Positions 7,094 to 22,562 of a DNA stretch of 64,000 nucleotides are shown piece by piece. The notes under the pieces are model-generated. The model was given only the letters and a program-made list of their open reading frames with translations, ran no database searches and was not told the DNA's origin. This DNA comes from Aliiruegeria lutimaris (GTDB taxonomy: Bacteria > Pseudomonadota > Alphaproteobacteria > Rhodobacterales > Rhodobacteraceae): positions 1 to 64,000 of the forward strand of contig NZ_FNEK01000006.1 of the NCBI RefSeq assembly GCF_900099935.1, in the 5' to 3' direction. Within the stretch, counting starts at the first letter, position 1, and the number at the start of each line of letters is the position of its first letter. The translations under genes and the position numbers were made by a program.

Positions 7094-7657
7094 TCAACGA
7101 CACGCGTTCTTACCCCAGTTTTTTGATTGCCGCCTGTGGACTCGCCTCACGATGACATCTAACCGTGAGACCGCTCGCGCAACCTTGGTCCGCAGGATCT
7201 TGAGATCCAGATCGAGATTCCGGGCCTTGGCTTTCCGCTTCAGGGCGGAGATCATGCCCGATCTCTCAGCTTCATCAGACTTTGCGATCTCGACGCAGGC
7301 CGGGTCCACTTCGTCCATGGACATGGGAGCGACGCGCTTCTGCACCTGCTTCTTGATATCGAGCGTCGTCCAACCGGGGCCGAGGAGCGGCTTCAGTCTT
7401 GCGATCTCGTCGGGCCACGCGTCGGGATCCATTATTGCAATGCGGGAGAACTCTTTGTCTCGGGCTGCAATGTCCAGCGCCTGCGTTCGAAATCGTCGCT
7501 GGAGATCCTTCTCCAGCTTCGCTACGGTCAAACCTTTGGGCTCGCCCAACTCAACAATTAGGTCTCCCAAGAGTGTTGCCCGTTCCGCCTCGGTGCCGAG
7601 TTCAGCGGCCTGATCCAGCACCTCGCCGACTCGTCTGTTCTGTTGCTCACTCAGCAT
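7094..7657 (-). CDS. Hypothetical protein linked to primase-polymerase
   Basis: 187 residues, strongly charged and largely helical by composition, with no motif I recognise. Its ATG (7655-7657) shares one base with the stop of the upstream primase-polymerase gene (TGATG), so the pair is translationally coupled and probably came from the same plasmid, phage or integrative element. The C-terminus is basic (RRVHRRQSKNWGK), compatible with nucleic-acid binding, but this is only composition. No function is proposed. Confidence 0.55.
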   Translation of the reverse strand: MLSEQQNRRVGEVLDQAAELGTEAERATLLGDLIVELGEPKGLTVAKLEKDLQRRFRTQALDIAARDKEFSRIAIMDPDAWPDEIARLKPLLGPGWTTLDIKKQVQKRVAPMSMDEVDPACVEIAKSDEAERSGMISALKRKAKARNLDLDLKILRTKVARAVSRLDVIVRRVHRRQSKNWGKNACR

Positions 7658-8580
7658 CAGGTCTTTCCCCCGATGGTGGCAAAGAACTCTGCTTCATCCT
7701 CTTCGGACGTGGCCGGCTGAACCAACGCCGGAGCTATGTAGTCTTTTTCCAGTGACCGGATCGCGGCGGCGGCGCATCTGCACGCAGCACGTGGCTGCGA
7801 AACGGAAGGGCTGTTGGCGGCCTGTCCATGCTGGAACTTCTTAACGAGCAGAAAGACGATCTCGTCGAACGTGAAACCGGCCCGGGCAAGCATGTGAGCC
7901 GTCGAGAAATCCATGGCGGAGCGACTTCGTGCCTGCTCCTTGAGGCCGCCAGTCATTCCCTCCCAGCGACCGGCGATCCTCGCACCGACGAGGATCTTGA
8001 CTTCGAGCCGACCCATCACATCGGCTTTTTGCTCTGTCGTCAGTTGGGTGTACTCAGGCAGGTCGAGGCGTCCGACACCAGAGCCACCGGAGTACCCGCG
8101 AATGATCTCCTTGCAGGCGCTGTCGGTCAACATGGCTAGGGGCTTGGGCCGTACCACACGGTAGCCCTCGCCGAAGGCGATCCAGCCGCCAGCGCCGCGA
8201 CCGTCGAGGCCAACCACGATCCCGGCACGGCTAGGCAGGTCACTGAACTTCGCGGGAGTGCGATAGATGGCGTGCAAACCTCCCGAGACGGTCCTGTGCA
8301 CGCGTGTATCTCCGGTCAGCCCGTGCTTCTTCAGCCATTGTTCGGGAGCCGATCCGGGCTTGTAGATATCGAGATCGAGGGCATAGAGCCCGTGGCCCAT
8401 CAGGATTCCGACGCCGTTGCAACGTCCCTCCCAATCGTGAGCGTCGATGTCGAGACTGGCGTCAAGGTGCCCGTGTTGGGTCAGCGGAGTCTTTTGCCAC
8501 TTCTCACCAATCTTCTGGACCCTTACCGGGAAGACGGGAATGCCCATGGTGATGAACTGGCGGGCATCATCCCCAGACAT
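7657..8580 (-). CDS. Bifunctional DNA primase/polymerase domain protein, 5'-truncated
   Basis: Prim-pol (AEP-type) replication protein of mobile elements. It shows the family sequence from its first strand (MGIPVFPV), through a conserved Lys/Pro segment (KTPLTQHG), the acidic catalytic motif ALDLDIYKPG and the VSGGLHAIYRTP strand corresponding to the GGxH motif. A C-terminal helical region follows. The first ATG is at 8580, immediately beside the left edge of an IS3 transposase fragment (8583), and no ribosome binding site precedes it, so the native start and promoter seem to have been replaced. Probably a non-expressed remnant, together with the coupled 187-residue gene downstream. Confidence 0.75.
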   Translation of the reverse strand: MSGDDARQFITMGIPVFPVRVQKIGEKWQKTPLTQHGHLDASLDIDAHDWEGRCNGVGILMGHGLYALDLDIYKPGSAPEQWLKKHGLTGDTRVHRTVSGGLHAIYRTPAKFSDLPSRAGIVVGLDGRGAGGWIAFGEGYRVVRPKPLAMLTDSACKEIIRGYSGGSGVGRLDLPEYTQLTTEQKADVMGRLEVKILVGARIAGRWEGMTGGLKEQARSRSAMDFSTAHMLARAGFTFDEIVFLLVKKFQHGQAANSPSVSQPRAACRCAAAAIRSLEKDYIAPALVQPATSEEDEAEFFATIGGKT

Positions 8581-8582
8581 AG

Positions 8583-8840
8583 GGCAAGATCGAGCGCTGG
8601 CACCAGACCATGAAGAACCGTGTTCTGCTGGAGAACTACTACCTGCCAGGTGACCTCGAACGGCAGATCGAAGCCTTCGTCGAGCACTACAGCAACCACC
8701 GCTACCACGAGAGCTTGGGCAACCTGACACCCGCTGACGTCTACCACGGTCGGGGCGCTCAGATCCTGTCAATGAGAGAGGAGATCAAGAAACAGACAAT
8801 CCGGAAACGCCGCTTGCAGCAGGACAGCGCTGCCGCGTAA
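8583..8840 (+). pseudogene. IS3-family transposase, C-terminal fragment
   Basis: An 85-codon fragment starting GKIERWHQTMKNRV, the segment carrying the catalytic Glu of the DDE triad, and continuing with HYSNHRYHESLGN and TPADVYHGRG, typical of the end of an IS3 OrfB integrase core. Both catalytic Asp residues and the N-terminal half are missing. It runs to a natural stop. It abuts the truncated primase-polymerase gene on the opposite strand, so this insertion or a later deletion probably broke that gene. Confidence 0.85.
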
Positions 8841-9195: not shown

Positions 9196-9384
9196 AGGAC
9201 CACGGACCGAATTGTTTTCGCGGCCGAGTTTGAACTGCTCCGGAAGGTTGCCGTTGCTGTTCGTCGCGCTCGCCTGAGAGATTCATTTCCAAAGTGCATT
9301 GTGAACTAAGAGAGCTTTGTCTCGCCGTTCGCCTTGTCCGTCATCAAAAGAAGTGGTCCGACTGAGTTGATCCCGATCTGGAAC

Positions 9385-9489
9385 CACGATGTAGCGGCTG
9401 TAATCATCGAGGATGGTGGAGAGATCGAACCAGCCCCAACCAATGACCCTCAGGTAGGTGAAGTCCGTCTGCCACAGCTGGTTCGGTCG
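9385..9489 (-). pseudogene. IS3-type integrase-core fragment
   Basis: The minus strand encodes RPNQLWQTDFTY followed by VIGWGWFDLSTILDDYSRYIV, the well-conserved middle of an IS3-type transposase containing the first (TDF) and second (LDDYSR) catalytic-region motifs. The frame is open for 123 codons (9283-9651), but sequence outside these 35 residues no longer matches, indicating frameshift and decay. This is a different element from the fragments at 8583 and 9932. Confidence 0.75.
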
Positions 9490-9694
9490 CATTCGCCATT
9501 TTCGCTCGGACCATGTATGGATGGCGTCCGCGGGGCAAGGGCTTGTCGTTGCGATTTTGGCGTCTGGTCGGTTGCGGCCATGTATACGGCGTCTGATCTG
9601 CAACACGGCGGCTGCGCGCCCTGATGTATTCCGCGGTCGCTTTGGTTCCAATCAATGGCACGCGCTTCGATGCGCTCCGGTTCGAACAGGGTGT

Positions 9695-10207: not shown

Positions 10208-11632
10208 TCAGCAGAGCGGGGCAAGCTGGCGGCGAAGCTGTCGTTCGTCGACCTTGGAGGCGTGACGTTTGTCCATGGGGATGCTCTTCACGTGTACGAC
10301 ATTGCCCACACCATGCGTCTCGGCGTTTCGACGCCACTCGTGCAGATGCAACGGATCGCCCTCAATTGCCAGAACAGCCGATTCATCGTTCAGCCGTACC
10401 AGCGCGGCGCGGCTTACACCCGGCCAGTAGCGCGCCGAGGTTTCTACCTGCAGCGGCATCGGCTGCGAGATCCCGTCGGCCCGCCAGCGCCCGAGAAGCC
10501 ATAGCCGCCCCTGCGTGTCCATCCGCGCTGCATCTCCGGTCCGATGCCAGATCCGCGCGTCTTCGCGGATCTTGTCGCCTGCATCCTGTGCCGGATCGAT
10601 ATATCCCGAATTGACGTGATCGCCGGAGACCTGGATTTCTCCATCCACGAGGCGCAGTTCGAGACCCGGCACCGGGGGCCCGGCGAGCAGGCCGCCACCG
10701 GCTTCCATCTCGGCCCAGTCCGCGTCCGAAATCGACTCCGTTCCGATATGCGCGATCGGCTCGGCTTCGGTCGAACCGTAGACGGCGACCACGCGCAGGT
10801 CCGGCCTTTGGTGCCGCAGCCGCTGTATCGTGTCGGGGAAGACCGGGCCGCCGCCCGTGAAGATTGTCGAAATGCTCGACGGAACGCCCGTTGCCGCCAG
10901 TTTTTCGCAGATCGCCGGGGGCAGCAGCAGGCGGGTGGCGCCGCTGCGGGTGATCCAGTCGCGAATCTTCTCGATCTCGGCACGGTCCTGGCGGGTCAGT
11001 TTCCAGTTCGGCAGCACGGTGCAACGCCCGGCGGCAAGGTTGACCAGAGCGAATACCGGGAAACCGACCAGATCGCGCTCGGTGCCATCGGAGGCCAGCA
11101 GCGGCGAAACGGCTGCGTTCTGCGCCATCAGGAAGCCATGGCTGCGCAGGATGCCCTTGGGCGCGCCGCTGGAACCGGAGGTGAAGGAGATCAGGGCCGG
11201 GTCGTCGGGCGTCACTTCCGGTGATTGGAAGGTGTCGTCCCCTGTTCGCGACGCTTCAAGCCAGTGCATCCGCCAAAGCGCCGGCAGCAGGCGGAGCAGC
11301 CAATAGCGCCCCGCCGTGGCGAGCGCCACGGGTCGCGTCACGCGTATGGCATGCAGAAGCCCCCGCAGGCCCAGTGCCGGTTCGGGAAATACCGCCACCA
11401 GCCCGGCTTTCCAGATCCCGGCCAGCGTCACGTAGAGCTCCGACGTGACCGGAGCCGCCACCAGCACCCGGTCCCCCTTGCGCAGGCCGCGCTTCAGAAT
11501 TTGCGCCGCAAAGGCGGTCGAGCGCCGATCGAGTTCGGCGTTGGTGGTGATCTTTCCGGACGGATCAAGCAGCGCCGGGTCGTTCGGCGTGCGCGCAACC
11601 CGCGCCGCGAAGGCTTCAAGCAGGGTTGTCAT
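10208..11632 (-). CDS. AMP-dependent acyl-CoA synthetase/ligase
   Basis: Adenylate-forming enzyme that should activate a carboxylic acid with ATP, probably as a CoA or enzyme-bound ester. Signatures: the P-loop-like ISFTSGSSGAPKGILRSHG, the VYGSTEAEPIAH motif, HRTGDAARMDTQGRLWLLGR with the ribose-binding Asp, and the C-terminal catalytic Lys in DKRHASKVDERQL. That tail resembles OleC-type ligases. 474 residues, somewhat short for the family but with both domains. I chose the ATG at 11632; the codon before it is TTG. It overlaps the GNAT gene by 17 bases and ends the cluster. IS debris begins 100 bases downstream, so further genes may have been lost. Confidence 0.9.
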   Translation of the reverse strand: MTTLLEAFAARVARTPNDPALLDPSGKITTNAELDRRSTAFAAQILKRGLRKGDRVLVAAPVTSELYVTLAGIWKAGLVAVFPEPALGLRGLLHAIRVTRPVALATAGRYWLLRLLPALWRMHWLEASRTGDDTFQSPEVTPDDPALISFTSGSSGAPKGILRSHGFLMAQNAAVSPLLASDGTERDLVGFPVFALVNLAAGRCTVLPNWKLTRQDRAEIEKIRDWITRSGATRLLLPPAICEKLAATGVPSSISTIFTGGGPVFPDTIQRLRHQRPDLRVVAVYGSTEAEPIAHIGTESISDADWAEMEAGGGLLAGPPVPGLELRLVDGEIQVSGDHVNSGYIDPAQDAGDKIREDARIWHRTGDAARMDTQGRLWLLGRWRADGISQPMPLQVETSARYWPGVSRAALVRLNDESAVLAIEGDPLHLHEWRRNAETHGVGNVVHVKSIPMDKRHASKVDERQLRRQLAPLC

Positions 11633-12464
11633 CAAGCACTTTTCCCATCAGCGCGTAACGGCGGAACATGCGCCCCCCGAGCTGGGCGCTTCGCTGGGCC
11701 GAGACGTTCGTCTCATGGATCAGCGCGTGGATCGCGGTGGCGAAACCCGCCTCCTGCGCCGCGCTGTGGAAAACCGATGCCAGCGCTTGCCCCGCGCCAT
11801 GTTGCAGGCTGGCATAGGTCTTGAGAATGACCGTGTCCGGGGCAGGACCCGCGCCATAGTTCGGAATGCCAAAGAGAAAACCCACCAGTGCGCCTTCGGA
11901 ATTGTAGGCGAACAGGACGAATTCGCGCCGGATGACGGGCACGAAGGGAAGGTACATCCCCAGGAACGCCTCCCGCGAGATGGGGGTATAGAAAGCATTC
12001 CCGGAGAAGGCGGATAGCGACAGGTCGTAGACCTGAGAGAAATGCGCCTCGGGATCGGTGCCGTCCCAGGTTTCGACACGAATTTCCGGGTCCACGGGCG
12101 GTGGATTGTCCATGCCCGCAAGCGTGACCCGGGCGGAGAAATACCGGGCGATCGGGGCAAAACCGGCGGCCTCGAAGGCGGCAAGGTCGGATGGCCCCGA
12201 GGTTGGCTCCATGAGGAAGGGCGGCGTTCCATCGGTTTCGGTGACCAGCCGGTAGCTGTTCCAGGTGGTGCCGTCCATCGGGCCGAGAAGCCGGCGGGCA
12301 CCGGCCTCGCGCGCGGCGGCTGTGGCCTCGGCGAGAACCGCAGCCCCGTCCTTGACCGAACCGCATGAAAACTTTCCCACCGCCATGGTTGGCGCGCCTT
12401 CCCAGTCCGGCGCGTCGGGAAACAGCGTTGCATGGGCAGTGCCGTGGTTGAATTCCTGGGTCAC
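11616..12464 (-). CDS. GNAT-family N-acyltransferase
   Basis: About 282 residues with a GNAT-like fold in the C-terminal half: a beta strand FVLFAYNSEGALVGFLFGIP, then VILKTYASLQHGAGQALASV where the acyl-CoA pyrophosphate loop would be, and HALIHETNVSAQRSAQLGGR, close to the usual C-terminal asparagine/alanine helix. Start is the GTG at 12464, which overlaps the preceding stop as GTGA; upstream codons in the same frame run through the kinase-like gene and are not real. In this cluster it may acylate an amino group, for instance one introduced by the BtaA-like enzyme. That role is inference. Confidence 0.78.
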   Translation of the reverse strand: MTQEFNHGTAHATLFPDAPDWEGAPTMAVGKFSCGSVKDGAAVLAEATAAAREAGARRLLGPMDGTTWNSYRLVTETDGTPPFLMEPTSGPSDLAAFEAAGFAPIARYFSARVTLAGMDNPPPVDPEIRVETWDGTDPEAHFSQVYDLSLSAFSGNAFYTPISREAFLGMYLPFVPVIRREFVLFAYNSEGALVGFLFGIPNYGAGPAPDTVILKTYASLQHGAGQALASVFHSAAQEAGFATAIHALIHETNVSAQRSAQLGGRMFRRYALMGKVLDDNPA

Positions 12465-13792
12465 AGCTTTCCTCCCTCGAAGGTTGCGGCAGAGATGGCG
12501 TAGGCGAGCGCTGGCAGCAGGACCGCCAGCACGCCGAGCCGGGGCATGCGGTATCGGTAAAAGACGCCGGGGCGGGTCACCGTCGCCATGCCGACCAACG
12601 CGACGCTTGCAATCATGACCAGCCCAGCCTGCGGTGCCCAGTGTTTCTCGGCCGGGTTGAAATCCATCAGCCAGTTCCAGACCGGCGGCATCGCAACGCC
12701 CAGCCCGAGAAAGGCGGCAAGCCGTGTTCCAAGGCCAAGGCCCGACATCGCCAGCATCGTCAAACCCACGCAAATCCCTGCAAGACTCGCCCCGAAGGCA
12801 TCCAGCGCGTTGAAGCCCGTTGCGTTGCCAGCGGCGAGCCAGCCAAAGCTCAGCGCGGCGAGTGCCGCGACCGCATCCAGTTCGGGATGCGCGCTGGCGC
12901 TGGGGGATTTGCGTTCGGCGACGAGGTGAAGAAGCAGCATCAGAACGCAGAAGACGACGTTTTGCGTGGCCGTGACCGAAAGCAGAAGGAAGATCGCGGC
13001 AAGGTACGCGCGCGCGATCTGGGTCGGCAGGCCGAAACGGCGGGCGGTTGCATGGAACAGGGCCAGTGCCCCGAGATAGGTGGCGAACAGGGTTATCAGG
13101 TCTTCGGCACTGCTTGTCCTGTGTTCCCGCAGAATGATCAGCACCGCCAGCGGCAGGAACAGGTTGTCGAAACCGCGCCAGCTATCGGCCTCCACGAACG
13201 TGCTGAAGGTCGCGATCAGGAAGGCGAGGATCACGACGTTTTCGCGCGAGATGCCGGACAGCAACAGCAAGCATGTCATTGACAGGATGACTGTTACCAG
13301 GAAGAGGACCGCACTGCCCTCGAGGCTCTTTTGACCGTCCTCGACGGCAATGAAGCGCCTGCCATAGGCGCTGCCGGCCAGTGCGGCGGCGGCGTCGCCA
13401 AGTGTCAGAACGGCCAGCGGCAGGATATAGAGCAGCGGATCACGCTGGCTGAGCAGGAGCACCAATCCGACCGCGGCAACGATCAGGAAGTCGCCATAGG
13501 ACTGCCGCTCCACGGAATGGAGCGCGGCGCCGGCACCCTTGGAACGCAGGGCGGGCAGGCGCATCGCGGCCATCGCCAGAACTGCAAGACCGAGCAGCAG
13601 ATAGACCGGCCAGTTTTCGGAAAAGACGTACGGCAGGCAGATCGCAAAGAGCCCGGTGACCACATGGACGATCTTGCGCTGCAATTCGGCGCTCCAGCAG
13701 GCAGCCTCCGCTCGGCGGCGCACCAGCATCATGAAGCCGAGCAGGCCCGCAATGGAGAGTGCCGCCAGCAGGATCGGGCCGAGCAGGGCCAT
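12461..13792 (-). CDS. Dolichol/phytol kinase-like integral membrane protein
   Basis: 443 residues with about 12-14 hydrophobic segments. The N-terminal half carries the marks of the SEC59/VTE5/CTP-transferase superfamily: LQRKIVHVVTGLFAICLPYV, then LGDAAAALAGSAYGRRF and KSLEGSAVLFLVTVILS, matching the RKxxH, GDxxAxxxGxxxG and KSxEG motifs of CTP-dependent polyprenol and phytol kinases. The second half is a further membrane domain without a clear match. The ATG at 13792 shares a base with the upstream stop (TGATG). It would phosphorylate a lipid or isoprenoid alcohol at the inner membrane. Not close enough to assign a substrate. Confidence 0.8.
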   Translation of the reverse strand: MALLGPILLAALSIAGLLGFMMLVRRRAEAACWSAELQRKIVHVVTGLFAICLPYVFSENWPVYLLLGLAVLAMAAMRLPALRSKGAGAALHSVERQSYGDFLIVAAVGLVLLLSQRDPLLYILPLAVLTLGDAAAALAGSAYGRRFIAVEDGQKSLEGSAVLFLVTVILSMTCLLLLSGISRENVVILAFLIATFSTFVEADSWRGFDNLFLPLAVLIILREHRTSSAEDLITLFATYLGALALFHATARRFGLPTQIARAYLAAIFLLLSVTATQNVVFCVLMLLLHLVAERKSPSASAHPELDAVAALAALSFGWLAAGNATGFNALDAFGASLAGICVGLTMLAMSGLGLGTRLAAFLGLGVAMPPVWNWLMDFNPAEKHWAPQAGLVMIASVALVGMATVTRPGVFYRYRMPRLGVLAVLLPALAYAISAATFEGGKL

Positions 13793-14883
13793 CACCGCAC
13801 CTGCTCGATCACGAAATCGGAGTAGAAAAAGGCTTTGTCCATCTGCTTGAGGTCGTTTTCCAGAGCGGTGAGTGGCTTCACCCGGTCTGCAAGTGAAGCA
13901 GGTACCCGGCGCGGCGCCATCATGTTCCAGTAGACCAGCCGCGCCCCCGGGCTCGCGCGCTCAAGAAGTCGCGCATAGGCGGCTTCGGCCGCTGCGGGCG
14001 ACATGTATTCGAAGATATCGGACAGGTTGAACCCGTCCACCGGCGTGGTGCCGCTGGACTCCATGGGGCCGTGGACCAGTTCGAGCCGGTCCAGCCTGTC
14101 GCGGATGATCTCGTAGGGCTCCGGCCGCCAGGGCATCGGCAGTGCCGCGCCATGCCCGCCCTTGAGGATCCAGTGCAGGAACGGGTTCTCCGCCGGGTCG
14201 CAGGTGACCCCTGCATGGCGGATGCGACGGGCGACATGTTCGGCGACGGAGCCCTCGACATGGTCGAAGAACGCCTTGTCCCGGCCCATTCGGCCCATTG
14301 TGAAACGGGAAAAGAAAAGCTGCAGCATCAGCCGCCAGCGCCAGGTGACGAAGCGCTCGTCCAGGAAACGCACGCGTTCGGCCTGTGGTCGGGAGACGAA
14401 AACATCGTCGATGGTTCGACGGGAATGGATAAGCGGCAGGAGCCATTGGCGGAAGATACGAAAATACCGCTCGAACCGGCCGACACCGCCAGCGCCAAAG
14501 GCTTCGACCTGTGGGCGCAGCGCCTGCCAGCGAGTGCGGGTCTCCTCCGGCAGGTTCTTCAGCGCGCGGTCTAGCAATGCGCCCCGTCGCTCGCTCGGGC
14601 GCGACCCCATCAGTTCGAGGAATTCCGGCTGCTCCATCGCGCGCATCGCGCCCATGCGCAGGCGCAGGCAATCGAGCTGTGCCGCCGACAGGTCGACCGC
14701 CGTAACCCGCTCGGGGTCCAGTGTCAGGAGCGCCAGCGCGTTATCGCCCGCCGAGCAGACCGAGAGGAAATTCTGCCCCGGATCCGGGCGCATCGCGGCG
14801 ACCAGGATATCGGCATCCTCCCATAACTGGGCGTAGCGGATGATGTCGAAGCGGGCCCGCTCGGCGATGTCATTGCGTGTCAT
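13792..14883 (-). CDS. DUF3419/BtaA-like 3-amino-3-carboxypropyl transferase
   Basis: 363 residues resembling BtaA, which moves the 3-amino-3-carboxypropyl group of S-adenosylmethionine onto diacylglycerol in betaine-lipid synthesis. Visible family features: IIRYAQLWEDADILV near the N-terminus, the SAM-binding loop LSVCSAGDNALALLTLDP, the acidic residue AVDLSAAQLDCL, and GRFERYFRIFRQWLLP. A second conserved block ends with GFNLSDIFEYMSP. No btaB-type N-methyltransferase lies beside it, so the product is probably not a betaine lipid. It overlaps the dikinase gene by 14 bases. Here I infer that it adds a homoserine-type head group to the cluster's lipid product. Confidence 0.85.
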   Translation of the reverse strand: MTRNDIAERARFDIIRYAQLWEDADILVAAMRPDPGQNFLSVCSAGDNALALLTLDPERVTAVDLSAAQLDCLRLRMGAMRAMEQPEFLELMGSRPSERRGALLDRALKNLPEETRTRWQALRPQVEAFGAGGVGRFERYFRIFRQWLLPLIHSRRTIDDVFVSRPQAERVRFLDERFVTWRWRLMLQLFFSRFTMGRMGRDKAFFDHVEGSVAEHVARRIRHAGVTCDPAENPFLHWILKGGHGAALPMPWRPEPYEIIRDRLDRLELVHGPMESSGTTPVDGFNLSDIFEYMSPAAAEAAYARLLERASPGARLVYWNMMAPRRVPASLADRVKPLTALENDLKQMDKAFFYSDFVIEQVR

Positions 14884-17326
14884 GGCCGAGCCGAACCTCC
14901 CCGCTTTCCCCGTCGACGGTCAGCCACGCGCCCTCGGGCACCCAATCCGTCGCCCCCTTGATGCCGACGACGCAGGGGATGCCAAGCTCCCGCGCCACGA
15001 TGGCCGAATGTGACAGCAGCGAGCCGCGCTCGACGACAATGGCCGCCGCGTTGGAAAAGACGGCGATCCAGCCGGGGTCGGTGTTTCGTGCCACGAGGAT
15101 TTCACCAGCGACCAGGTGCTCGCTGCGCGGGTCGCGGATCACGCGGGCAGGCGCGGTGACACGGCCCGCCGAACAGCCCGTGCCGATGCGGGCATCGCCG
15201 GTCTCTTCCGGTTTCGCCTGTGCCGGCCCGGCGCGCACCAGCAGCGCCGCACCGCGCCCGATGAGGCGTTCCGGCGGATCGGGCAGGCGTGCGTTGTGAT
15301 CCTGTTCCGCCTTGCGGGCAGATACGATCGCGCGGAGATCGGTCGAGAGGGCATTGCCTTCGATGGCGCCCAGAACCTCCCCGACCGTCAGGTGGAAGAT
15401 ATCGCGCGGCGCGTCCAGCCGGCCATTGGCCCAGAACTCCCGGCCCATGGCGAGGAAAACGCGCCGGGCATGGCCAAAGATCCGGGTGCGCTCGAAGCGC
15501 AGGTTCTCCCGGTCCCGCACCCGCGCCTTGGCATAGACGGTGGCCCAGCGGGCGAGCTGTCGGCGGACCGGCCTGCCCGGAATTGCTGCCTCCCAGTCGG
15601 GTTCGGAGCGCTCGGCGGTGGCTTTGGCGGATCGGTTCGCGCTGGCTGCAATCGCGGCGAGAAGCTGCGAGGGGTCTTCATCGAGCGGGATCGATTCCAG
15701 TTTCAACTCCTGCGTGCAGCGATCCCCGAAGCGCTCCAGATAGGCTGTGAACGCGGCTTCGATTTCAGGCTGCCCCGCCAAGGCCACGCGACCGTCTTGG
15801 AGAAGGGCGTTGGCCAGCCCTGCCGCGGCCACCATCCGGCCCATCTCAGCGATCCGCTGCGACGGCTCGGCAGAGACAATATCGCCTTGGCCGATCATCA
15901 CGTCGTTATGCAGCGACAGTCCCGCCGGGCCGGCCCATTTCTCCAACAGCTTGCGCGATCCGCCAAAGGCCATCATGCAGAGGAAATCGTTGACCAGCGG
16001 CGCATCCCAGCGGTCGAGAAGGTCCGCCTCGATGGTCCGCCACGTGGCGGCCAGTTCGGTGAGATTGGCCCTCTCGGGCGGCGTGCCGGTGGCAAGGGCG
16101 CGTTCCAGCCGCGTAAGGAACCGGCGTTTCGTGGCCGGCAGGCGCAGCGCGGCCCAGAAAAGGCCCATGGCGACCCGCGTCGTTCTGAGCGTTTCGATGA
16201 ACCGCTTCAGCCCGGTGGCCGGTGGCGGGCCGATGGAATCCCGAAGTTCGGCCGGAAGCGGCTCATCGACCCCCATCATGGTTTCCATGTGGTCCCGGTT
16301 GCGGGAGAAGCCGGGCAGAAGCGCCAATGTCCGGTACCAGTTGCCGAGGTTGTAATAGACCCGGCCATCGACGCGGGTAAGCAGGTTGTCGAAGACGGGC
16401 GTGTTGGCGGAGATCTCGGCAGGGCGGACCCCGAGCAGCGCCACGAAGGCCCGGTAGACCCGGTTATAGACATAACAGGCAAAGCTGTAGGTGAGCGGGC
16501 TGACGATGCCGGGATAACTCTCGACGATATTGGAATTGTCCAGCACGACCAGAGCGCCGTCCGGCATCGGGCGCGGGCGTAGCAGCGTGGTGATCGGGCG
16601 GGATTGCAGCATGTAGAGCCGCGCGCCGTCGAGCGCCCATTCGATATCCTGTGGCCTGCCGAAAACCTCCTCGGCGCGCGTGGCAAGGGTGGCGATCTTC
16701 TGCGCCTCTTCCTGCGTCAGGACCTGCGGCTCCGCGGGAGTAACGAGCAACTCGCCTGTCTCCGAAACCTGCCAGTCTTCGCCATCGGCCGCGCCGGAAA
16801 CCAGCGCTTCGCCCAGTCCCTCCACCGCCGAAATGACCCGGCACCCCTGGAACCCGCTGACCGGGTCGGCCGAAAATGCCACACCGGCCGCGCGCGCCGG
16901 CACCATTTGCTGAACGATGATCGCCGGGGCTTCGGCCGGCGCGGCATGGGTTGCCGCCCGGTAGCTCGCGAGGCTGTCGGAAAAGCCCGAGGCCCAGACG
17001 TCGCGGATTGCGGCTTCCACCTCCGGCGCGGGAATGTCGAGCCCGGTATGGAACTGGCCGGCGTGGCTGTGCGCGCTGCCGTCCTCGGCCCGCCCGGAGG
17101 AGCGCACGGCGTATGGGCCCGGTCCCAGGCGTTCGAGCGCCTCTTGCAGTTCTGCGGCGAGTTCTGGCTGCGCGACAACACAATCATCCTGCCAATGGCA
17201 GGCTTGCGGCGAGACCACGCAAAACGCGGGCACATCGAAGCCCGCCTCGGATAACCGGTGGAGCGCCGCGCCCTTGCCGCCGGCGGTTTCCACCGAGATC
17301 TCTTCGGGCTTCAGGATCAGGTTCAT
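14870..17326 (-). CDS. PEP-synthase/rifampin-phosphotransferase-like dikinase
   Basis: 818 residues. N-terminal ATP-grasp part: GGKGAALHRLSEAGFDVPAF, YAVRSSGRAEDGSAHSHAGQ, then AGVAFSADPVSG and DIEWALDGARLYMLQSRPIT. A long helical middle section (about 330-680) follows. The C-terminal swivelling domain has the phospho-carrier His773 in GSLLSHSAIVARELGIP and stops shortly after. The PEP/pyruvate-binding barrel of true PEP synthases is missing, so the layout is that of rifampin phosphotransferases: ATP plus an acceptor hydroxyl gives AMP, Pi and a phosphorylated acceptor. It starts three bases after the prenyltransferase stop. Acceptor unknown; a lipid or isoprenoid alcohol would fit the cluster. 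Confidence 0.85.
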   Translation of the reverse strand: MNLILKPEEISVETAGGKGAALHRLSEAGFDVPAFCVVSPQACHWQDDCVVAQPELAAELQEALERLGPGPYAVRSSGRAEDGSAHSHAGQFHTGLDIPAPEVEAAIRDVWASGFSDSLASYRAATHAAPAEAPAIIVQQMVPARAAGVAFSADPVSGFQGCRVISAVEGLGEALVSGAADGEDWQVSETGELLVTPAEPQVLTQEEAQKIATLATRAEEVFGRPQDIEWALDGARLYMLQSRPITTLLRPRPMPDGALVVLDNSNIVESYPGIVSPLTYSFACYVYNRVYRAFVALLGVRPAEISANTPVFDNLLTRVDGRVYYNLGNWYRTLALLPGFSRNRDHMETMMGVDEPLPAELRDSIGPPPATGLKRFIETLRTTRVAMGLFWAALRLPATKRRFLTRLERALATGTPPERANLTELAATWRTIEADLLDRWDAPLVNDFLCMMAFGGSRKLLEKWAGPAGLSLHNDVMIGQGDIVSAEPSQRIAEMGRMVAAAGLANALLQDGRVALAGQPEIEAAFTAYLERFGDRCTQELKLESIPLDEDPSQLLAAIAASANRSAKATAERSEPDWEAAIPGRPVRRQLARWATVYAKARVRDRENLRFERTRIFGHARRVFLAMGREFWANGRLDAPRDIFHLTVGEVLGAIEGNALSTDLRAIVSARKAEQDHNARLPDPPERLIGRGAALLVRAGPAQAKPEETGDARIGTGCSAGRVTAPARVIRDPRSEHLVAGEILVARNTDPGWIAVFSNAAAIVVERGSLLSHSAIVARELGIPCVVGIKGATDWVPEGAWLTVDGESGEVRLGHDTQ

Positions 17327-17329
17327 GGC

Positions 17330-18244
17330 TCAAGCCCCGAATTCGAGCGGAAGGAAGCCTGCCGCGAGGTAGCACAGCAGCACCCATAACCCGGAAGCCA
17401 TGTCCACGCGCCCTTGCCAGACGGGATCGGGTGTGGCCCGAAACCGCATCATGCAGAAGGCGACAAGCAGCAACCCGGTGCCGCCCGCTGCCGTGATCGC
17501 GGTCGCCGCGCCGAGCGCTTGTCCCAGGGCGGCGAGCAGGAGGAAAGCGATGACGACCGTGGCAAACCATATCAGGACTGCCCGCCGTGGCCCCCACAGG
17601 CCCGAATAGGTCTCGACCCCTTCACGCTCCTTCTCGGGCGCCCAGACCTTGCGGCCGATCTCGATCACGCAGCCATTGGCGAAACTCAGCGCAAGGAACC
17701 ACGCGAGGGCGGGTGAGGGGGCTCCGCCGCCGGCGGTCCATTCGATGCCGGTCAGCATCAGGTCGATCAGCGGCATGATCAGCATGTGGCTGAGCAGGTA
17801 GACCACCGGGCGGGCCTTGAGCCACGCGGGCGATCCGAATTCGGCGGTCATCAGGGTCAGCCAGACCCATGTCAGGCACAGCAATCCCAGCGTTGCCAGG
17901 TTCCACGACCACGCGAGTGCGAGCATCCCGGCACCCACCACGGCCGCGAGCGTGAGAATGGTCCGCAGGCTGACCAGCCCGCGCGGGATGGGCCGTTCGG
18001 GCCGGTAACGGCAGTCGTCCTCCAAGTCCTTGTACTCGTCGCAGGCACGCATCTGGAAGAAGATCCCGAGCGCCAGCAGCGCCGCGATGACATAGGCCAT
18101 GGGGCCGGGCAGGGGGCGCCCGGCCAGCATCGCCGAGACATTGATGCTGGCGGCGGCGAACACGGAAAGCAAAGGCACTGTCCGAACAAGCGGAAAGCGC
18201 TCGGATTGGTAGATCCAGAGGCGTCCTGCGAGGCCCGCGGTCAT
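17330..18244 (-). CDS. UbiA-family prenyltransferase-like membrane protein
   Basis: 304 residues, about eight to nine membrane segments. The first Asp-rich motif is present as ACDEYKDLEDDCRYRPERPI followed by PRG (residues 67-89), as in enzymes binding Mg-prenyl diphosphate. The second motif region (EIGRKVWAPEKEREGVETYS, about 195-214) keeps the Glu, Arg and Lys pattern and the GVxTYS end but lacks the usual DxxxD, so the acceptor or mechanism may differ. The ATG overlaps the HMG-CoA reductase stop as ATGA. Probably transfers an isoprenoid onto a polar acceptor at the inner membrane. Confidence 0.83.
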   Translation of the reverse strand: MTAGLAGRLWIYQSERFPLVRTVPLLSVFAAASINVSAMLAGRPLPGPMAYVIAALLALGIFFQMRACDEYKDLEDDCRYRPERPIPRGLVSLRTILTLAAVVGAGMLALAWSWNLATLGLLCLTWVWLTLMTAEFGSPAWLKARPVVYLLSHMLIMPLIDLMLTGIEWTAGGGAPSPALAWFLALSFANGCVIEIGRKVWAPEKEREGVETYSGLWGPRRAVLIWFATVVIAFLLLAALGQALGAATAITAAGGTGLLLVAFCMMRFRATPDPVWQGRVDMASGLWVLLCYLAAGFLPLEFGA

Positions 18245-19530
18245 CTCTTGCGCGCCAGCTTGTGGTGGGCAGACGCGAAATGCCCCGCCGCCATCGCCGC
18301 CACGATGGAGATTTCTCCACACAGGCAGAGCGCCGCCGTCACCTCGGCCAGGGCCGCCGCGCTCTCCGGTCCCTCCAGCCCGACAAGGCTCAGCGCTGCG
18401 TGCTGGCTGGGAAGGCGCGTGCCGCCGCCTACGGTTCCCACGAGGATATTCGGCATCGTGACCGAGCAGAACAGCCCGTCCTCGCGCCGCTCCAGTCGCG
18501 TGAAGCCCACCGCGCTTTCGGCGACGCAGGCGGCATCCTGCCCGGTCGCGATATAGAAGGCCGCCAGCGCGTTGGCGTAATGGGCCTGGGCGCCGAACTG
18601 GCCGGAAAGCAGCGCGCCGAGCCCTGCCACGCGGCTGTAATCGAGCATCGCGTCGATATCGGTGCGCAGCACCTTTTGGACGATCTCCCCGGGCAGGACC
18701 ACCGAGGCGCTGACCTTGCGCCCGCGCCCGGTCAGGGTTCCGAGCGAGGTCGCCTTCTTGTCGCCGGAGAAATTGCCCTCGACATACCAGCGCTGCGGCT
18801 TGATCGGGCATTCGGCGACCGCCTTCTTGCCAAGGGCGTCGGTCGCGATGGTCACCATGTTCTGTCCCGCGGCTTCGCCGGTGGTGAAGCGGCAAAGCAG
18901 GAAAGCGATGTTGTTGTCGATCACGGGCTCCAGCGAGACGAGCCGTCCGTGCGATGTCGTCGCTTCGGCGGCCTTCTTCAGCTGCTCCACGTTGCTCACG
19001 ACCCAGTCGACGAAACGTCCGGCGCTCAGCAAGCTGTCGAAGACGAAGGCCGGGGAACGGAGCACGCCTTCATAGAGGACCGCTGTGCTGATCCCGCCGG
19101 CCCGGGTGGCGGCCAGGGCGCCCCGCGCAGAGGACGCGACGAGCGCGGCTTCCGTGGTCGCGAGCGGCAGGTGGAAATCTCCATCCGCGTGCAGGCCGCG
19201 CACACGCAGCGGACCAACGACGCCCACGGGCACCTTCACCGTTCCGATCATGTTCTCGATATTGCCCGAGTAGGCTTCGGCGTTTGCCAGTGTCTCGGCA
19301 TCGGCCAGGAGCGCCTCGCTCAGCTCGGATGCTTTCCCCTGTCCGCGAAGCACCGTCCACAAGCTGGTAATTGACGCCGACGATGCCGACTGCGTACCCC
19401 GGAATGGCGCATGCGCCGCATCACTGGGAAGCATGCGGCTTTCGCGACCGTCCTGAAAATACAAGGCCCGCACGCGTTTGAGCATATCGAGCACATGGTT
19501 GGGGACAATCACGACCGTCACCTCCAGCAT
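18241..19530 (-). CDS. HMG-CoA reductase, class I
   Basis: Four-electron NADPH-dependent reductase of HMG-CoA to mevalonate, or of a related acyl-CoA. Numbering from the chosen ATG (429 residues): ENMIGTVKVPVGVVGPL, catalytic Glu127 in LATTEAALVAS, Lys258/259 in GNFSGDKKATS, Asp332 in ATGQDAA, His422/423 in the SAHH near the C-terminus, and GTVGGGTRLPSQ. The cofactor loop is GEAAGQNM in place of the usual DAMGMNM. The DKK segment is the class I (eukaryote/archaea) form. ATG 19530 has GGGAG eight bases upstream; longer frames would start inside the preceding hairpin. First gene of the cluster. Surprising in a group that makes isoprenoids by the MEP route. Confidence 0.88.
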   Translation of the reverse strand: MLEVTVVIVPNHVLDMLKRVRALYFQDGRESRMLPSDAAHAPFRGTQSASSASITSLWTVLRGQGKASELSEALLADAETLANAEAYSGNIENMIGTVKVPVGVVGPLRVRGLHADGDFHLPLATTEAALVASSARGALAATRAGGISTAVLYEGVLRSPAFVFDSLLSAGRFVDWVVSNVEQLKKAAEATTSHGRLVSLEPVIDNNIAFLLCRFTTGEAAGQNMVTIATDALGKKAVAECPIKPQRWYVEGNFSGDKKATSLGTLTGRGRKVSASVVLPGEIVQKVLRTDIDAMLDYSRVAGLGALLSGQFGAQAHYANALAAFYIATGQDAACVAESAVGFTRLERREDGLFCSVTMPNILVGTVGGGTRLPSQHAALSLVGLEGPESAAALAEVTAALCLCGEISIVAAMAAGHFASAHHKLARKR

Positions 19531-19790: not shown

Positions 19791-21146
19791 TCACCCGTAA
19801 ATCAGGTTCGGCAGCCACGTTATGACCTCGGGGAAGAGCATGCAGACTGCGAGGCCAACGACCTGCAGGAACAGGAATGGAAGCGCCGCTACGAAGATAT
19901 CCTTCATGGGAATCGACGGCGGGGCCACCCCCCTGAGGTAGAAGAGAGCGTAGCCGAAGGGGGGCGACAGAAAGCTCATCTGCATGTTCACGAGGTAGAG
20001 CACGCCAAACCACAGCACGAGGTCGTTCGGGTCGTCGAAGCCGAAAGCGGCCGCCCCAAGGGCCTTGATGATAGGCACGAAGATGGGCACGCAGAGCAGC
20101 AGGATTCCCACCCAGTCGAGAAACATCCCCAACACAATCAGCAATATCTGCATGACGATCAGGATACCCCACGGGCCGAGGCCCGCGCCCTGCATCGTTT
20201 CCTGCACGAATTGCTGGCCGCCTTCGAGCACGTAGAGGCCAACGAAGATCGTCGCGCCGAACATGATCCAGATCACCATGGCGCTGGCCTTGAGCGTGGT
20301 CAGGCAGGCTTCACGGACGGTCGCCCAATCCAGCTTGCGGTGGATCGCCGCGACGATGAAGGCGCCGAAGGTGCCGATGCCGGCGGCTTCCACCGGCGTG
20401 GCGACGCCGGTGAAGATCACGCCCAGCACGATCACGATCAGCGCGATCGGCGCGGCCATCTTGCCAAGCAGGTTGAATTTTTCGCGGGTCGAGACGCGTT
20501 CGCTTTCCGGGATCGGCGGGCCGAGATCGGGGTTCAGGAAGCACCGGAAGGTGACGTAGAGGATGTAGAGACCAGACAGCATCAGGCCGGGGATGACCGC
20601 CCCGACGAAGAGCTCACCCACCGATTGTTCGGCCACCACCGCGTAGATGATGGCGAGGATCGAGGGGGGGATCAGGATGCCGAGTGTGCCGCCGGCCATG
20701 ATCGATCCCATGGCGATCTTCGGATCGTAGCCGCGCTTGAGCATCGCCGGCAGCGCGATGATACCCATCGTGACAACCGCCGCGCCGATCACTCCGACCA
20801 TGGCGGCGAGGATGGTGGAGGCGAGGATCGTCGCCGCCGCCAGTCCGCCGCGCAAACCGCCGAGCAGCTTGTAGATCACGTCGAACATATCGTTGATAAG
20901 CCCGGCTTTCTCCAGCATCGCCGCCATGAATATGAAGAGCGGTATCGCTGAAAGCTGGTAATTCGTCATCAGCGGGAAGATCCGGCTGGGAACGATATTG
21001 AGCGCCCGTGCGTCGCCCAGAACGAACAGGAACACGCAGGCCAGCCCGCCGGTGACGAAGGCCAGCGGCAACCCCGCCATCAGCAGGGCTACCAGCGATC
21101 CGAACATGATGAGCGTCAACAGCTCGATGGAAATTTCGAGGCCCAT
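19791..21146 (-). CDS. TRAP transporter large permease (DctM-like)
   Basis: 451 residues, about 12-13 membrane segments, the sodium-coupled transport subunit of a tripartite ATP-independent periplasmic importer. Typical DctM stretches are present: PLFIFMAAMLEKAGLINDMF, MGSIMAGGTLGILIPPSILA and VTGGLACVFLF at the N-terminus. The C-terminal half includes MFLDWVGILLLCVPIFVP, also conserved. It begins four bases after the small-subunit gene, so the two are co-translated. Ligand is set by the DctP partner (22563-23663). Confidence 0.93.
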   Translation of the reverse strand: MGLEISIELLTLIMFGSLVALLMAGLPLAFVTGGLACVFLFVLGDARALNIVPSRIFPLMTNYQLSAIPLFIFMAAMLEKAGLINDMFDVIYKLLGGLRGGLAAATILASTILAAMVGVIGAAVVTMGIIALPAMLKRGYDPKIAMGSIMAGGTLGILIPPSILAIIYAVVAEQSVGELFVGAVIPGLMLSGLYILYVTFRCFLNPDLGPPIPESERVSTREKFNLLGKMAAPIALIVIVLGVIFTGVATPVEAAGIGTFGAFIVAAIHRKLDWATVREACLTTLKASAMVIWIMFGATIFVGLYVLEGGQQFVQETMQGAGLGPWGILIVMQILLIVLGMFLDWVGILLLCVPIFVPIIKALGAAAFGFDDPNDLVLWFGVLYLVNMQMSFLSPPFGYALFYLRGVAPPSIPMKDIFVAALPFLFLQVVGLAVCMLFPEVITWLPNLIYG

Positions 21147-21150
21147 GGTC

Positions 21151-22476
21151 TCAGTGTCCTCTCGCGATCGTGCGGATATCTTTTGATAGCTTGGAAACGC
21201 CCTGCAGGATCAGAAGCAGCGATCCGACGACCATCATCCATTTCATCGGCCAGAGCGGGATCTCCCACTCGTTGAAGCTGATCTCGCCCCAGCGGATATT
21301 CGGGTCCGTCCAGTCGCCGAAGGTCAGCATACCGAGCATTTCGAAGAAACCGACGTCTCCTCGTGCCCAGTCCGACACCACGGAGTTTCCGGAAGGCACG
21401 GCGATGGCGTCCATTGCGAAGATGTAGGAGGTCACCAGCAGCGTGCCGGCAAAGATGAAGAAAAAGATCGACGTGACCAGATCCGCCCAGGCTTTCTGTG
21501 GCTTGCGCAACGGGGCGTAGAAGATGTCTACCCGAACGTGGCTTTCGGTGAGCATCGCGTAGGATCCGGCAATCAGGTACTGCATTCCGAACATCAGGTA
21601 CATGGACTCGTGGGCCCAGTTGGTCGGCGAATTGAAGACGTAGCGGACGATGACCTCGTAGTAATAGACGAAGACCGCGATCACGGCCCAGTAACTTACG
21701 AATTCGCCAGCATAGAGCGCGAGCCGGTCGATCCAGTTCTCGGCGAAATCGGCATCGCCGCGGCGGGCATCGGGGTCGAACTCGGCGGCCCGTGCCGCCG
21801 TTTCCTCGTCGATCTCGAACTCTTCCTCGTTGTCCTGCTCGGCGAGCGCGCGTGCGCGGCGCGCCAGTCCGGGCAGGAGCACGGCGTCGATCGCAAGCAG
21901 CGCGAGGATGACGAAGAACGCATAGCGCGCCATGCTGTTCCAGAACGCCCGGCCTTCGGCGGCCTCATCGGCAGCCGGGCCGTATTCGGCAAGCTGCGCC
22001 TGCGCTTCCGCGATCCGTTCGCGTCCGGTTTCAATCCCCTTCTCCGCGCGCGACAACGACTTTTCCGCGCGGCGCTTGGTAAAGCTGCCTTCCTCGGCGA
22101 CCTGCACGGCGGCCTGAAGCTCCGGCAGATCCTTCTCGGCCGTCTCGACCCTCTCTGCCTCACGCTCGATCGTTCGTTCCGCGGTCCGCACGTAATTGCT
22201 GGCATCCGAATAGAGCGAGCGTGCCGCGCGCTCCTGCCCGTTTGCGAACAGGATCGCGATGAAAAGCGGGATATAGACCAGTCCCAGCAGGCTGCGGAAA
22301 TAGAAACGGTGCAACCCGAGCAAGCCGCCGGTCACGAGGATCATGTACCCCAGCGGCAAACCATATGTCCGTTCCCCCGGCGCGGTCTTCCGGGCCAGGT
22401 ACATCGCCGCAAGCGGAAACAGGATGAGCCCCACCCAATACATCCAGTGCGGCAAGGTGAAATCGATATTCGGCAT
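21151..22476 (-). CDS. TRAP small permease (DctQ) with TM2-like/coiled-coil N-terminal extension
   Basis: 441 residues, more than twice the usual DctQ length. Residues about 255-441 are a normal four-helix DctQ (YYEVIVRYVFNSPTNWAHES, then ESHVRVDIFYAP). The N-terminal 95 residues contain GGLLGLHRFYFRSLLGLVYI, a TM2-domain-type GxxGxHRFY motif within three membrane segments. Residues about 90-165 are a charged coiled coil rich in Glu, Arg and Ala, followed by another membrane segment and an acidic linker. One continuous frame with no sign of frameshift. The extension could scaffold the transporter or sense membrane state; its role is unknown to me. Confidence 0.85.
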   Translation of the reverse strand: MPNIDFTLPHWMYWVGLILFPLAAMYLARKTAPGERTYGLPLGYMILVTGGLLGLHRFYFRSLLGLVYIPLFIAILFANGQERAARSLYSDASNYVRTAERTIEREAERVETAEKDLPELQAAVQVAEEGSFTKRRAEKSLSRAEKGIETGRERIAEAQAQLAEYGPAADEAAEGRAFWNSMARYAFFVILALLAIDAVLLPGLARRARALAEQDNEEEFEIDEETAARAAEFDPDARRGDADFAENWIDRLALYAGEFVSYWAVIAVFVYYYEVIVRYVFNSPTNWAHESMYLMFGMQYLIAGSYAMLTESHVRVDIFYAPLRKPQKAWADLVTSIFFFIFAGTLLVTSYIFAMDAIAVPSGNSVVSDWARGDVGFFEMLGMLTFGDWTDPNIRWGEISFNEWEIPLWPMKWMMVVGSLLLILQGVSKLSKDIRTIARGH

Positions 22477-22562
22477 GCTTCACTCCAGCTCGACGGCATT
22501 GCGCCGCCACGCGCAAGTGTCCGCGCGCCGGGGCGCGCGGACATTCCTCATGGCTAACGGTG

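What the first reader, a model, noticed from the sequence alone, without database searches (positions are those of the whole stretch)
10208..19530. Seven-gene coupled cluster: HMGR, UbiA-like, RPH-like dikinase, BtaA-like, dolichol/phytol kinase-like, GNAT, acyl ligase
Seen directly: seven minus-strand genes with ATGA, TGATG and GTGA junctions or overlaps of 14 and 17 bases; the largest gap is 3 bases. Established: each family can act on lipid or isoprenoid intermediates (reduction of an acyl-CoA to an alcohol, phosphorylation of alcohols, prenyl transfer, transfer of the 3-amino-3-carboxypropyl group of SAM, N-acylation, carboxylate activation). Inference: together they could build a prenylated or polyol lipid with a homoserine-type head group, acylated on nitrogen. 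I know of no described pathway with this set. The downstream edge meets IS debris, so genes may be missing.
Basis: partly seen in the sequence, partly recalled or inferred. Interest (0 to 1): 0.88.

Follow-up and report, generated by a model that had tools for sequence, protein, structure and literature searches.

The report
Conserved seven-gene lipid-like pathway operon
Seven tightly packed genes, kept together across many marine and soil bacteria, look like the recipe for an undescribed fatty, amino-acid-tagged molecule, and one of them is a relative of the cholesterol-pathway enzyme HMG-CoA reductase that seems to have changed its job.

Summary
The seven coupled genes are real and at the stated place; gene 1 more likely starts at 19512 than 19530. 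They are a conserved unit: of 80 relatives' loci examined (the best 80 of 160 found), 73 hold all seven in the same order (in one, two genes share a reading frame); the other 7 end at contig edges. Carriers are mainly Rhodobacterales, also Hyphomicrobiales, but only 15 of 292 sampled genomes of the order. The last gene is full length, so nothing conserved seems lost to the IS debris. Two labels change. The 'HMGR' keeps its four catalytic residues but lacks the two residues that hold HMG's carboxylate (Ser to Glu, Lys to Ala, 75 of 75), and no mevalonate kinase was found, so mevalonate is unlikely. The BtaA-like protein differs in motifs from six other DUF3419 genes and has no BtaB beside it. 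One distant relative has four of the genes plus a phosphatidylserine-decarboxylase-type gene, as expected if an aminocarboxypropyl group is added. P450s and a sulfotransferase recur beside the operon. Best reading: a dedicated pathway for an N-acylated aminocarboxypropyl amphiphile; all substrates and the product are inferred. Ten paper searches found no description.

The parts
18241..19512 (-).
   Evidence: PF00368 346 bits; catalytic Glu/Lys/Asp/His conserved, human Ser684->Glu and Lys735->Ala in 75 of 75 rows; start GTG 19512 with GGAGG upstream
17330..18244 (-). UbiA-superfamily membrane transferase; first Asp-rich motif present as DExKDxxxD, second degenerate (ExxGVxxYS)
   Evidence: PF01040 49 bits; motif conservation
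14870..17326 (-). PEP-synthase/RPH-type dikinase (ATP-binding + swivelling His domain)
   Evidence: PF01326 + PF00391; best solved chains 5fbs and kin, listed as PEP synthase and recalled to be rifampicin phosphotransferase; catalytic His and other residues conserved
13792..14883 (-). DUF3419 protein, predicted SAM 3-amino-3-carboxypropyl transferase, with motifs of its own
   Evidence: PF11899 173 bits; only DUF3419 match in the genome; alignment with six distant DUF3419 genes
12461..13792 (-). Polyprenol/phytol-kinase-like membrane protein with an RKxxH clamp and a longer C-terminal part
   Evidence: No supported family match; R39 K40 H43 in 81 of 81 rows as in the PfPolK clamp; model pLDDT 91 but no significant PDB fold match
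11616..12464 (-). GNAT-fold acyltransferase resembling tandem GNATs
   Evidence: Model pLDDT 93; Foldseek to tandem GNATs 7q3a E 7e-12 and 2wpw, mycothiol synthase 1ozp
10208..11632 (-). Acyl-adenylate-forming ligase, nearest to the PRK09274/OleC group; full length
   Evidence: PF00501 141 bits; PRK09274 257 bits, below its cut-off of 478; SFTSG loop and C-terminal Lys conserved; 474 aa against a median of 473 in relatives
9283..9651 (-). Transposase (rve) fragment marking the downstream edge; not part of the operon
   Evidence: PF00665 40 bits

Best explanation
A dedicated, co-inherited seven-gene operon that makes a membrane-associated amphiphile carrying a 3-amino-3-carboxypropyl (homoserine-type) group from SAM. 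Proposed steps, all inferred: the adenylate-forming ligase activates a carboxylic acid as its CoA ester; the repurposed HMGR-fold enzyme reduces that (non-HMG) thioester by four electrons to an alcohol; the RPH-type dikinase and the polyprenol-kinase-like membrane protein phosphorylate alcohols, giving an alkyl or prenyl (di)phosphate; the UbiA-type enzyme transfers that chain to an acceptor in the membrane; the DUF3419 enzyme adds the aminocarboxypropyl group, probably on oxygen as BtaA does; the GNAT acylates the free amine, which no BtaB-type enzyme of the operon trimethylates. In about a quarter of the loci a P450, often with a sulfotransferase, may tailor the product. Shown: operon integrity, family assignment of five genes by sequence and of the GNAT by fold of a model, conservation of active-site residues, replacement of the HMG anchors. 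Inferred: every substrate, the role of gene 5 and the order of steps.
For: Conserved unit: 73 of 80 loci with all seven in order, median gaps -8 to -1 bases; in one of them (L088) the dikinase and DUF3419 share one open frame. Pairwise distances of the seven families correlate, r 0.75-0.91, without a control for shared species history. Competent enzymes: HMGR Glu 74 of 74 ungapped, Lys, Asp and His 75 of 75; dikinase His 78 of 79 ungapped, Lys18 and Arg75 77 of 77 ungapped, DUF3419 GDN loop 81 of 81, ligase C-terminal Lys 77 of 77 ungapped, gene 5 clamp RKxxH 81 of 81 (PfPolK clamp). HMG probably not the substrate: Ser684->Glu and Lys735->Ala 75 of 75, residues named as contacts of the HMG moiety, Lys735 by a salt bridge to its carboxylate. 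No mevalonate route seen: two GHMP kinase matches in the genome, the better one reading as galactokinase beside galT; no mevalonate kinase over the cut-off. Aminocarboxypropyl step: a distant relative (L098) has dikinase, DUF3419, UbiA and GNAT followed by a PS-decarboxylase-family gene, 162 bits, able in principle to decarboxylate such a group to aminopropyl. Tailoring: a sulfotransferase + P450 pair in 15 of 80 loci; a second P450 family directly next to the operon in 6 others, on either side of it.
Against: No substrate or product was measured. The order of steps rests on family logic alone. Gene 5 has no supported family match and no significant PDB fold match. The UbiA second Asp motif is degenerate, so a diphosphate donor is not assured. 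Five HMGR-like proteins from Vibrio, Photobacterium, Alteromonas, Sinorhizobium and Streptomyces plasmid records also lack both anchors, and none of the four of these loci with annotated neighbours or the others showed this operon, so the substitution is not specific to this pathway. HMG binding by other residues is not excluded: the Arg590, Asp690, Lys692 and Asn755 equivalents are kept. The ligase may instead feed the GNAT.
Confidence: 0.4

Rival explanations
1. Gene 1 is a true HMG-CoA reductase and its mevalonate is itself the building block: the ligase makes mevalonyl-CoA and the GNAT puts it on an amine, as recalled for the SidI/SidF steps of fungal fusarinine siderophores.
For: HMGR-fold enzyme, adenylating ligase and GNAT occur together in one operon; all four catalytic residues and the Arg590, Asp690, Lys692 and Asn755 equivalents are kept.
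Against: Ser684 and Lys735, contacts of the HMG moiety, are Glu and Ala in all 75 rows; it does not explain UbiA, the kinase-like protein and DUF3419; no siderophore gene was recognised among the recurring flank families (by eye).
Confidence: 0.12
2. A non-phosphorus membrane lipid in bulk amounts, a variant of the homoserine/betaine lipids made by BtaA under phosphate starvation.
For: DUF3419 family and two integral membrane enzymes; lipid remodelling under phosphorus depletion is described in Rhodobacteraceae (PMC6298996, search listing).
Against: Motifs differ from six distant DUF3419 genes, three of which are followed by an ORF that reads as BtaB; no second DUF3419 gene in the genome; patchy presence, 15 of 292 order genomes; optional P450 and sulfotransferase look like specialised metabolism.
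Confidence: 0.2
3. A secreted specialised metabolite or signal (small prenylated amino-acid derivative, later hydroxylated and sulfated), not a membrane lipid.
For: Patchy presence, a plasmid copy in Roseinatronobacter sp. S2, P450 and sulfotransferase partners in two positions.
Against: The only transporter-type family among recurring flank families is an ABC-ATPase group in 25 of 80 loci, at scattered places; 6 of its members, in 5 loci, lie within 1.5 kb of the operon. Two membrane-embedded enzymes.
Confidence: 0.25

Closest known systems
BtaA/BtaB betaine-lipid (DGTS) pathway
   Same: DUF3419 aminocarboxypropyl transferase family; the SAM-loop region aligns
   Different: Motifs of its own (RYAQxWEDAD, SxGDN, LSDIFEYM against VYxQIWEDP, SGGCN, LLDAQDWM in most of the six distant genes); no BtaB in the operon; six other enzymes
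Class I HMG-CoA reductase
   Same: Fold family, catalytic Glu/Lys/Asp/His, GGGT loop
   Different: Ser684->Glu, Lys735->Ala, DAMGMNM -> (D/E)A(A/S)GQNMV; no mevalonate kinase over the cut-off in the genome
Rifampicin phosphotransferase / PEP-synthase-like ligases (PigC, RedH)
   Same: Domain order, conserved ATP-domain residues and histidine
   Different: None of the NCBIfam subfamily models shown passes its cut-off
Polyprenol/phytol kinases (VTE5, PfPolK)
   Same: RKxxH clamp (PfPolK passage) in a multi-helix membrane protein; further likeness of the KSxEGS and DN motifs is recalled
   Different: Longer C-terminal membrane part; no supported match in Pfam, NCBIfam or PDB folds
OleC-type adenylating ligases (PRK09274 group)
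   Same: Best NCBIfam model; C-terminal RHxxK motif (likeness recalled)
   Different: Below cut-off (257 of 478 bits); no OleA/B/D recognised by eye among recurring neighbours, not searched by model
Archaeal ether-lipid genes (HMGR, UbiA-type DGGGP synthase, CTP-dependent CarS; recalled)
   Same: Superficially similar trio of families
   Different: No prenyl synthase, GGGP synthase or geranylgeranyl reductase among the seven genes; gene 1 probably not mevalonate-forming

Membership tests
HMG-CoA reductase (mevalonate-forming) | Catalytic Glu559/Lys691/Asp767/His866 (human numbering, recalled) | tested here: met
   74 of 74 ungapped, then 75, 75 and 75 of 75 rows
HMG-CoA reductase (mevalonate-forming) | HMG contacts Ser684 and Lys735 | tested here: not met
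   Glu and Ala in 75 of 75 rows; Ser and Lys in the four solved chains whose alignments were printed, two of them alike (residue roles)
HMG-CoA reductase (mevalonate-forming) | Downstream mevalonate pathway in the genome | tested here: not met
   Mevalonate kinase model 91 bits against cut-off 163, hit reads as galactokinase; two GHMP kinase matches in all, the second not examined
BtaA/BtaB betaine-lipid pathway | DUF3419 domain | tested here: met
   173 bits, cut-off 28.2
BtaA/BtaB betaine-lipid pathway | Adjacent BtaB methyltransferase | tested here: not met
   None among the seven genes; none recognised by eye among families recurring in 5 or more of 80 loci
PEP synthase/RPH dikinases | PPDK_N + PEP-utiliser domain with catalytic His | tested here: met
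Polyprenol kinase | RKxxH clamp in a multi-helix membrane protein | tested here: met
   81 of 81 rows; helices in the model; compared with a passage on PfPolK
Polyprenol kinase | Fold match to a solved relative | tested here: inconclusive
   No PDB match at E <= 0.001
GNAT | GNAT fold | tested here: met
   Foldseek E 7.4e-12 to a tandem GNAT
OleC beta-lactone synthetase | NCBIfam equivalog score | tested here: not met
   155 bits against cut-off 900
UbiA prenyltransferase | Two Asp-rich motifs | tested here: inconclusive
   First as DExKDxxxD, 76 of 76 rows; second degenerate
All of the above | Measured substrate and product | not testable with these tools

The most novel reading that the evidence does not exclude
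A new class of bacterial amphiphile (N-acylated aminocarboxypropyl ether of a prenyl or alkyl chain, sometimes hydroxylated and sulfated), whose chain alcohol is made by an HMG-CoA reductase relative repurposed as an acyl-CoA-to-alcohol reductase on a non-HMG substrate, and whose activation uses an RPH-type phosphotransferase plus a polyprenol-kinase-like protein.
Probability: 0.3. Interest if true: 0.82.

Novelty: new variant of a known kind. Interest (0 to 1): 0.64.

Why it matters
If right, an alphaproteobacterial operon found in dozens of genera makes an unknown lipid-like compound, DUF3419 enzymes do more than betaine lipids, and 'HMG-CoA reductase' annotations in bacteria without a mevalonate pathway are wrong for a group of proteins. 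The four-gene core of the distant variant and the optional tailoring genes give a direct genetic and mass-spectrometric way to find the product.

Tried and rejected
Rejected: mevalonate supply (no mevalonate kinase over cut-off, anchors replaced); truncation by the IS (ligase full length; apart from optional P450/sulfotransferase genes and scattered ABC-transporter genes no family recurs downstream in 5 or more loci); betaine lipid as such (no BtaB).

Led nowhere: Pfam, NCBIfam and PDB searches with genes 5 and 6 (single-member chance hits only); the fold search with gene 5; a motif scan for gene-5-like proteins in L098, L101 and L103-L107, no hit; upstream k-mer counting in 73 regions, where the commonest 8-mers (14 of 73; shuffles up to 10) are not separable from kinship; dikinase neighbourhoods in two Streptomyces, one Methylocystis and genome G336, which did not show the operon; the IMG/VR scan, 6 pattern matches and no relative; an order search around G219, only 2 genomes held. 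Ten paper searches showed no paper describing this gene set. Only open-licence PMC papers are held, and only 10 of 22, 15 of 309 and 12 of 21 papers were listed. Passages only were seen of PMC9500038, PMC12421683, PMC10491745, PMC9782597 and PMC10849223; the rest were listings. The fungal siderophore and archaeal CarS parallels, human HMGR catalytic numbering, the roles of dikinase ATP-site residues, and the gene names galT and BtaB are recalled or read by eye.
Full report
Observation. One start is corrected: gene 1 most likely begins at GTG 19512, which has GGAGG eight bases upstream and gives 423 aa, the median length in relatives as called by script.

Conservation. A scan of the genome-contig collection with the DUF3419 protein found 160 encoded relatives; the best 80 were kept and examined. 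Of these, 73 hold all seven genes. In 72 the seven ORFs are co-linear on one strand; in the last, L088, the order is the same but dikinase and DUF3419 share one open frame, a possible fusion. The other 7 lack one to four genes and sit on loci that end at contig edges. Median gaps are -4, -1, -8, -4, -1 and -8 bases. By record title 68 loci are Rhodobacterales-type organisms and 12 are others (Hyphomicrobium, Chelativorans, Anderseniella, Bosea, Devosia, Marinicaulis, one gammaproteobacterial MAG); the orders are recalled, the titles are. Distances in the seven families rise and fall together (r 0.75-0.91), with no control for shared species history. In the midpoint-rooted tree of the joined alignments the 11 non-Rhodobacterales rows that entered it lie on one side. 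The operon is patchy: orthologues (59% identity or more) in 4 of 9 sampled genomes of the window's genus, 15 of 292 of the order, 2 of 385 of the class sample and 1 of 398 of the phylum sample, the window's own genome counted in each; the thresholds of these calls differ.

Gene 1. It is a class I type HMGR by Pfam and by its nearest solved chains; its NCBIfam scores are below the cut-offs (312 of 442 bits for the NADPH form). Catalytic residues are conserved. But Ser684 and Lys735, named among the contacts of the HMG moiety, Lys735 by a salt bridge to its carboxylate (PMC9500038, passage), are Glu and Ala in 75 of 75 rows, while Arg590, Asp690, Lys692 and Asn755 equivalents stay. The motif DAMGMNM reads (D/E)A(A/S)GQNMV. 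Five HMGR-like proteins taken from plasmid records also lack both anchors, so a wider group of bacterial 'HMG-CoA reductases' may act on other thioesters; it also means that the change is not special to this operon. The genome has one HMGR match and two GHMP kinase matches, the better of which reads as galactokinase beside galT; the other was not examined. A mevalonate pathway would need more such kinases (recalled). The MEP pathway was not searched.

Genes 2 and 3. Gene 2 is a UbiA-superfamily protein with the first Asp motif present and the second degenerate. Gene 3 is a PEP-synthase/RPH-type dikinase with its histidine conserved. None of the 25 NCBIfam models shown for it reaches its cut-off.

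Gene 4. It is the only DUF3419 match in the genome. It was aligned with the six distant DUF3419 genes; three of these (L010, L012, L015) are followed by an ORF that reads as BtaB, three are not, two of the latter being in the window's own genus. Gene 4 and its orthologues differ from the six in motifs; no tree was built. SAM aminocarboxypropyl transfer is inferred from the family (PMC10491745, passages).

Genes 5 and 6. Gene 5 has no supported family match, but the Arg-Lys-x-x-His clamp described for a polyprenol kinase (PMC10849223, passage) is present in 81 of 81 rows. Its model is confident (pLDDT 91) and has no significant match among solved folds, so this label is the weakest. Gene 6 is a GNAT by fold, closest to tandem GNATs.

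Gene 7. An adenylate-forming ligase nearest to the PRK09274/OleC group, below that model's cut-off, full length and with its conserved loop and C-terminal lysine. This, and the lack of any regular downstream partner, answers the worry that the IS removed part of the set.

Neighbours. A sulfotransferase + P450 pair lies beside the operon in 15 of 80 loci (14 divergent upstream, 1 downstream on the same strand). A second P450 family is directly upstream on the same strand in 4 and directly downstream in 2, with a 92-residue remnant in 1; one further locus has a P450 of 31% identity farther off. The pair is scattered: the smallest clade holding its 15 rows has 47. The window itself has neither next to the operon. 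ABC-transporter ATPases occur in 25 of 80 loci at scattered places. A distant relative, L098, holds dikinase (39%), DUF3419 (47%), UbiA (29%) and GNAT (26%) followed by a phosphatidylserine-decarboxylase-family gene, and no match to gene 1, gene 5 or the ligase on its 14.9-kb contig; the rest of that genome was not searched for them. This suggests a core of four genes with a detachable acid-activation, reduction and phosphorylation module, and fits an added alpha-amino acid group. It is one locus.

Reading. The evidence supports a dedicated pathway to a lipid-like compound with a SAM-derived aminocarboxypropyl group. The operon and the replaced HMG anchors are shown; every substrate, the order of steps and the product are inferred.

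Novelty. Each enzyme family is known except that of gene 5, which matched no model; the set and the two variants were not seen described in ten searches of the held library, which lacks most subscription journals.

Noticed in passing
window 19791-23663 (-): A TRAP transporter (DctM, a DctQ with a long N-terminal part, DctP) lies directly upstream of the operon on the same strand; no such family was among those recurring in 5 or more relatives' loci.
   Followed up: partly
L101, L102, L103, L104, L108: HMGR-like proteins of Vibrio, Photobacterium, Alteromonas, Sinorhizobium and Streptomyces plasmid records lack both HMG-contact residues, so annotation as hydroxymethylglutaryl-CoA reductase may be wrong.
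   Followed up: partly
L088:6638-11098 (+): Dikinase and DUF3419 share one open frame in a Devosia MAG; a real fusion or a sequence error.
   Followed up: partly
window 7657-8772 (-): A Prim-Pol (primase/polymerase) gene near the transposase debris suggests a mobile-element boundary downstream of the operon.
   Followed up: no
L105, L107: Streptomyces dikinases of the same broad family sit next to AfsA-type and isoprenylcysteine-methyltransferase-type genes.
   Followed up: no
L098:13697-14845 (-): Another ORF that reads as GNAT-like converges on the decarboxylase gene in the distant variant cluster (by eye).
   Followed up: no
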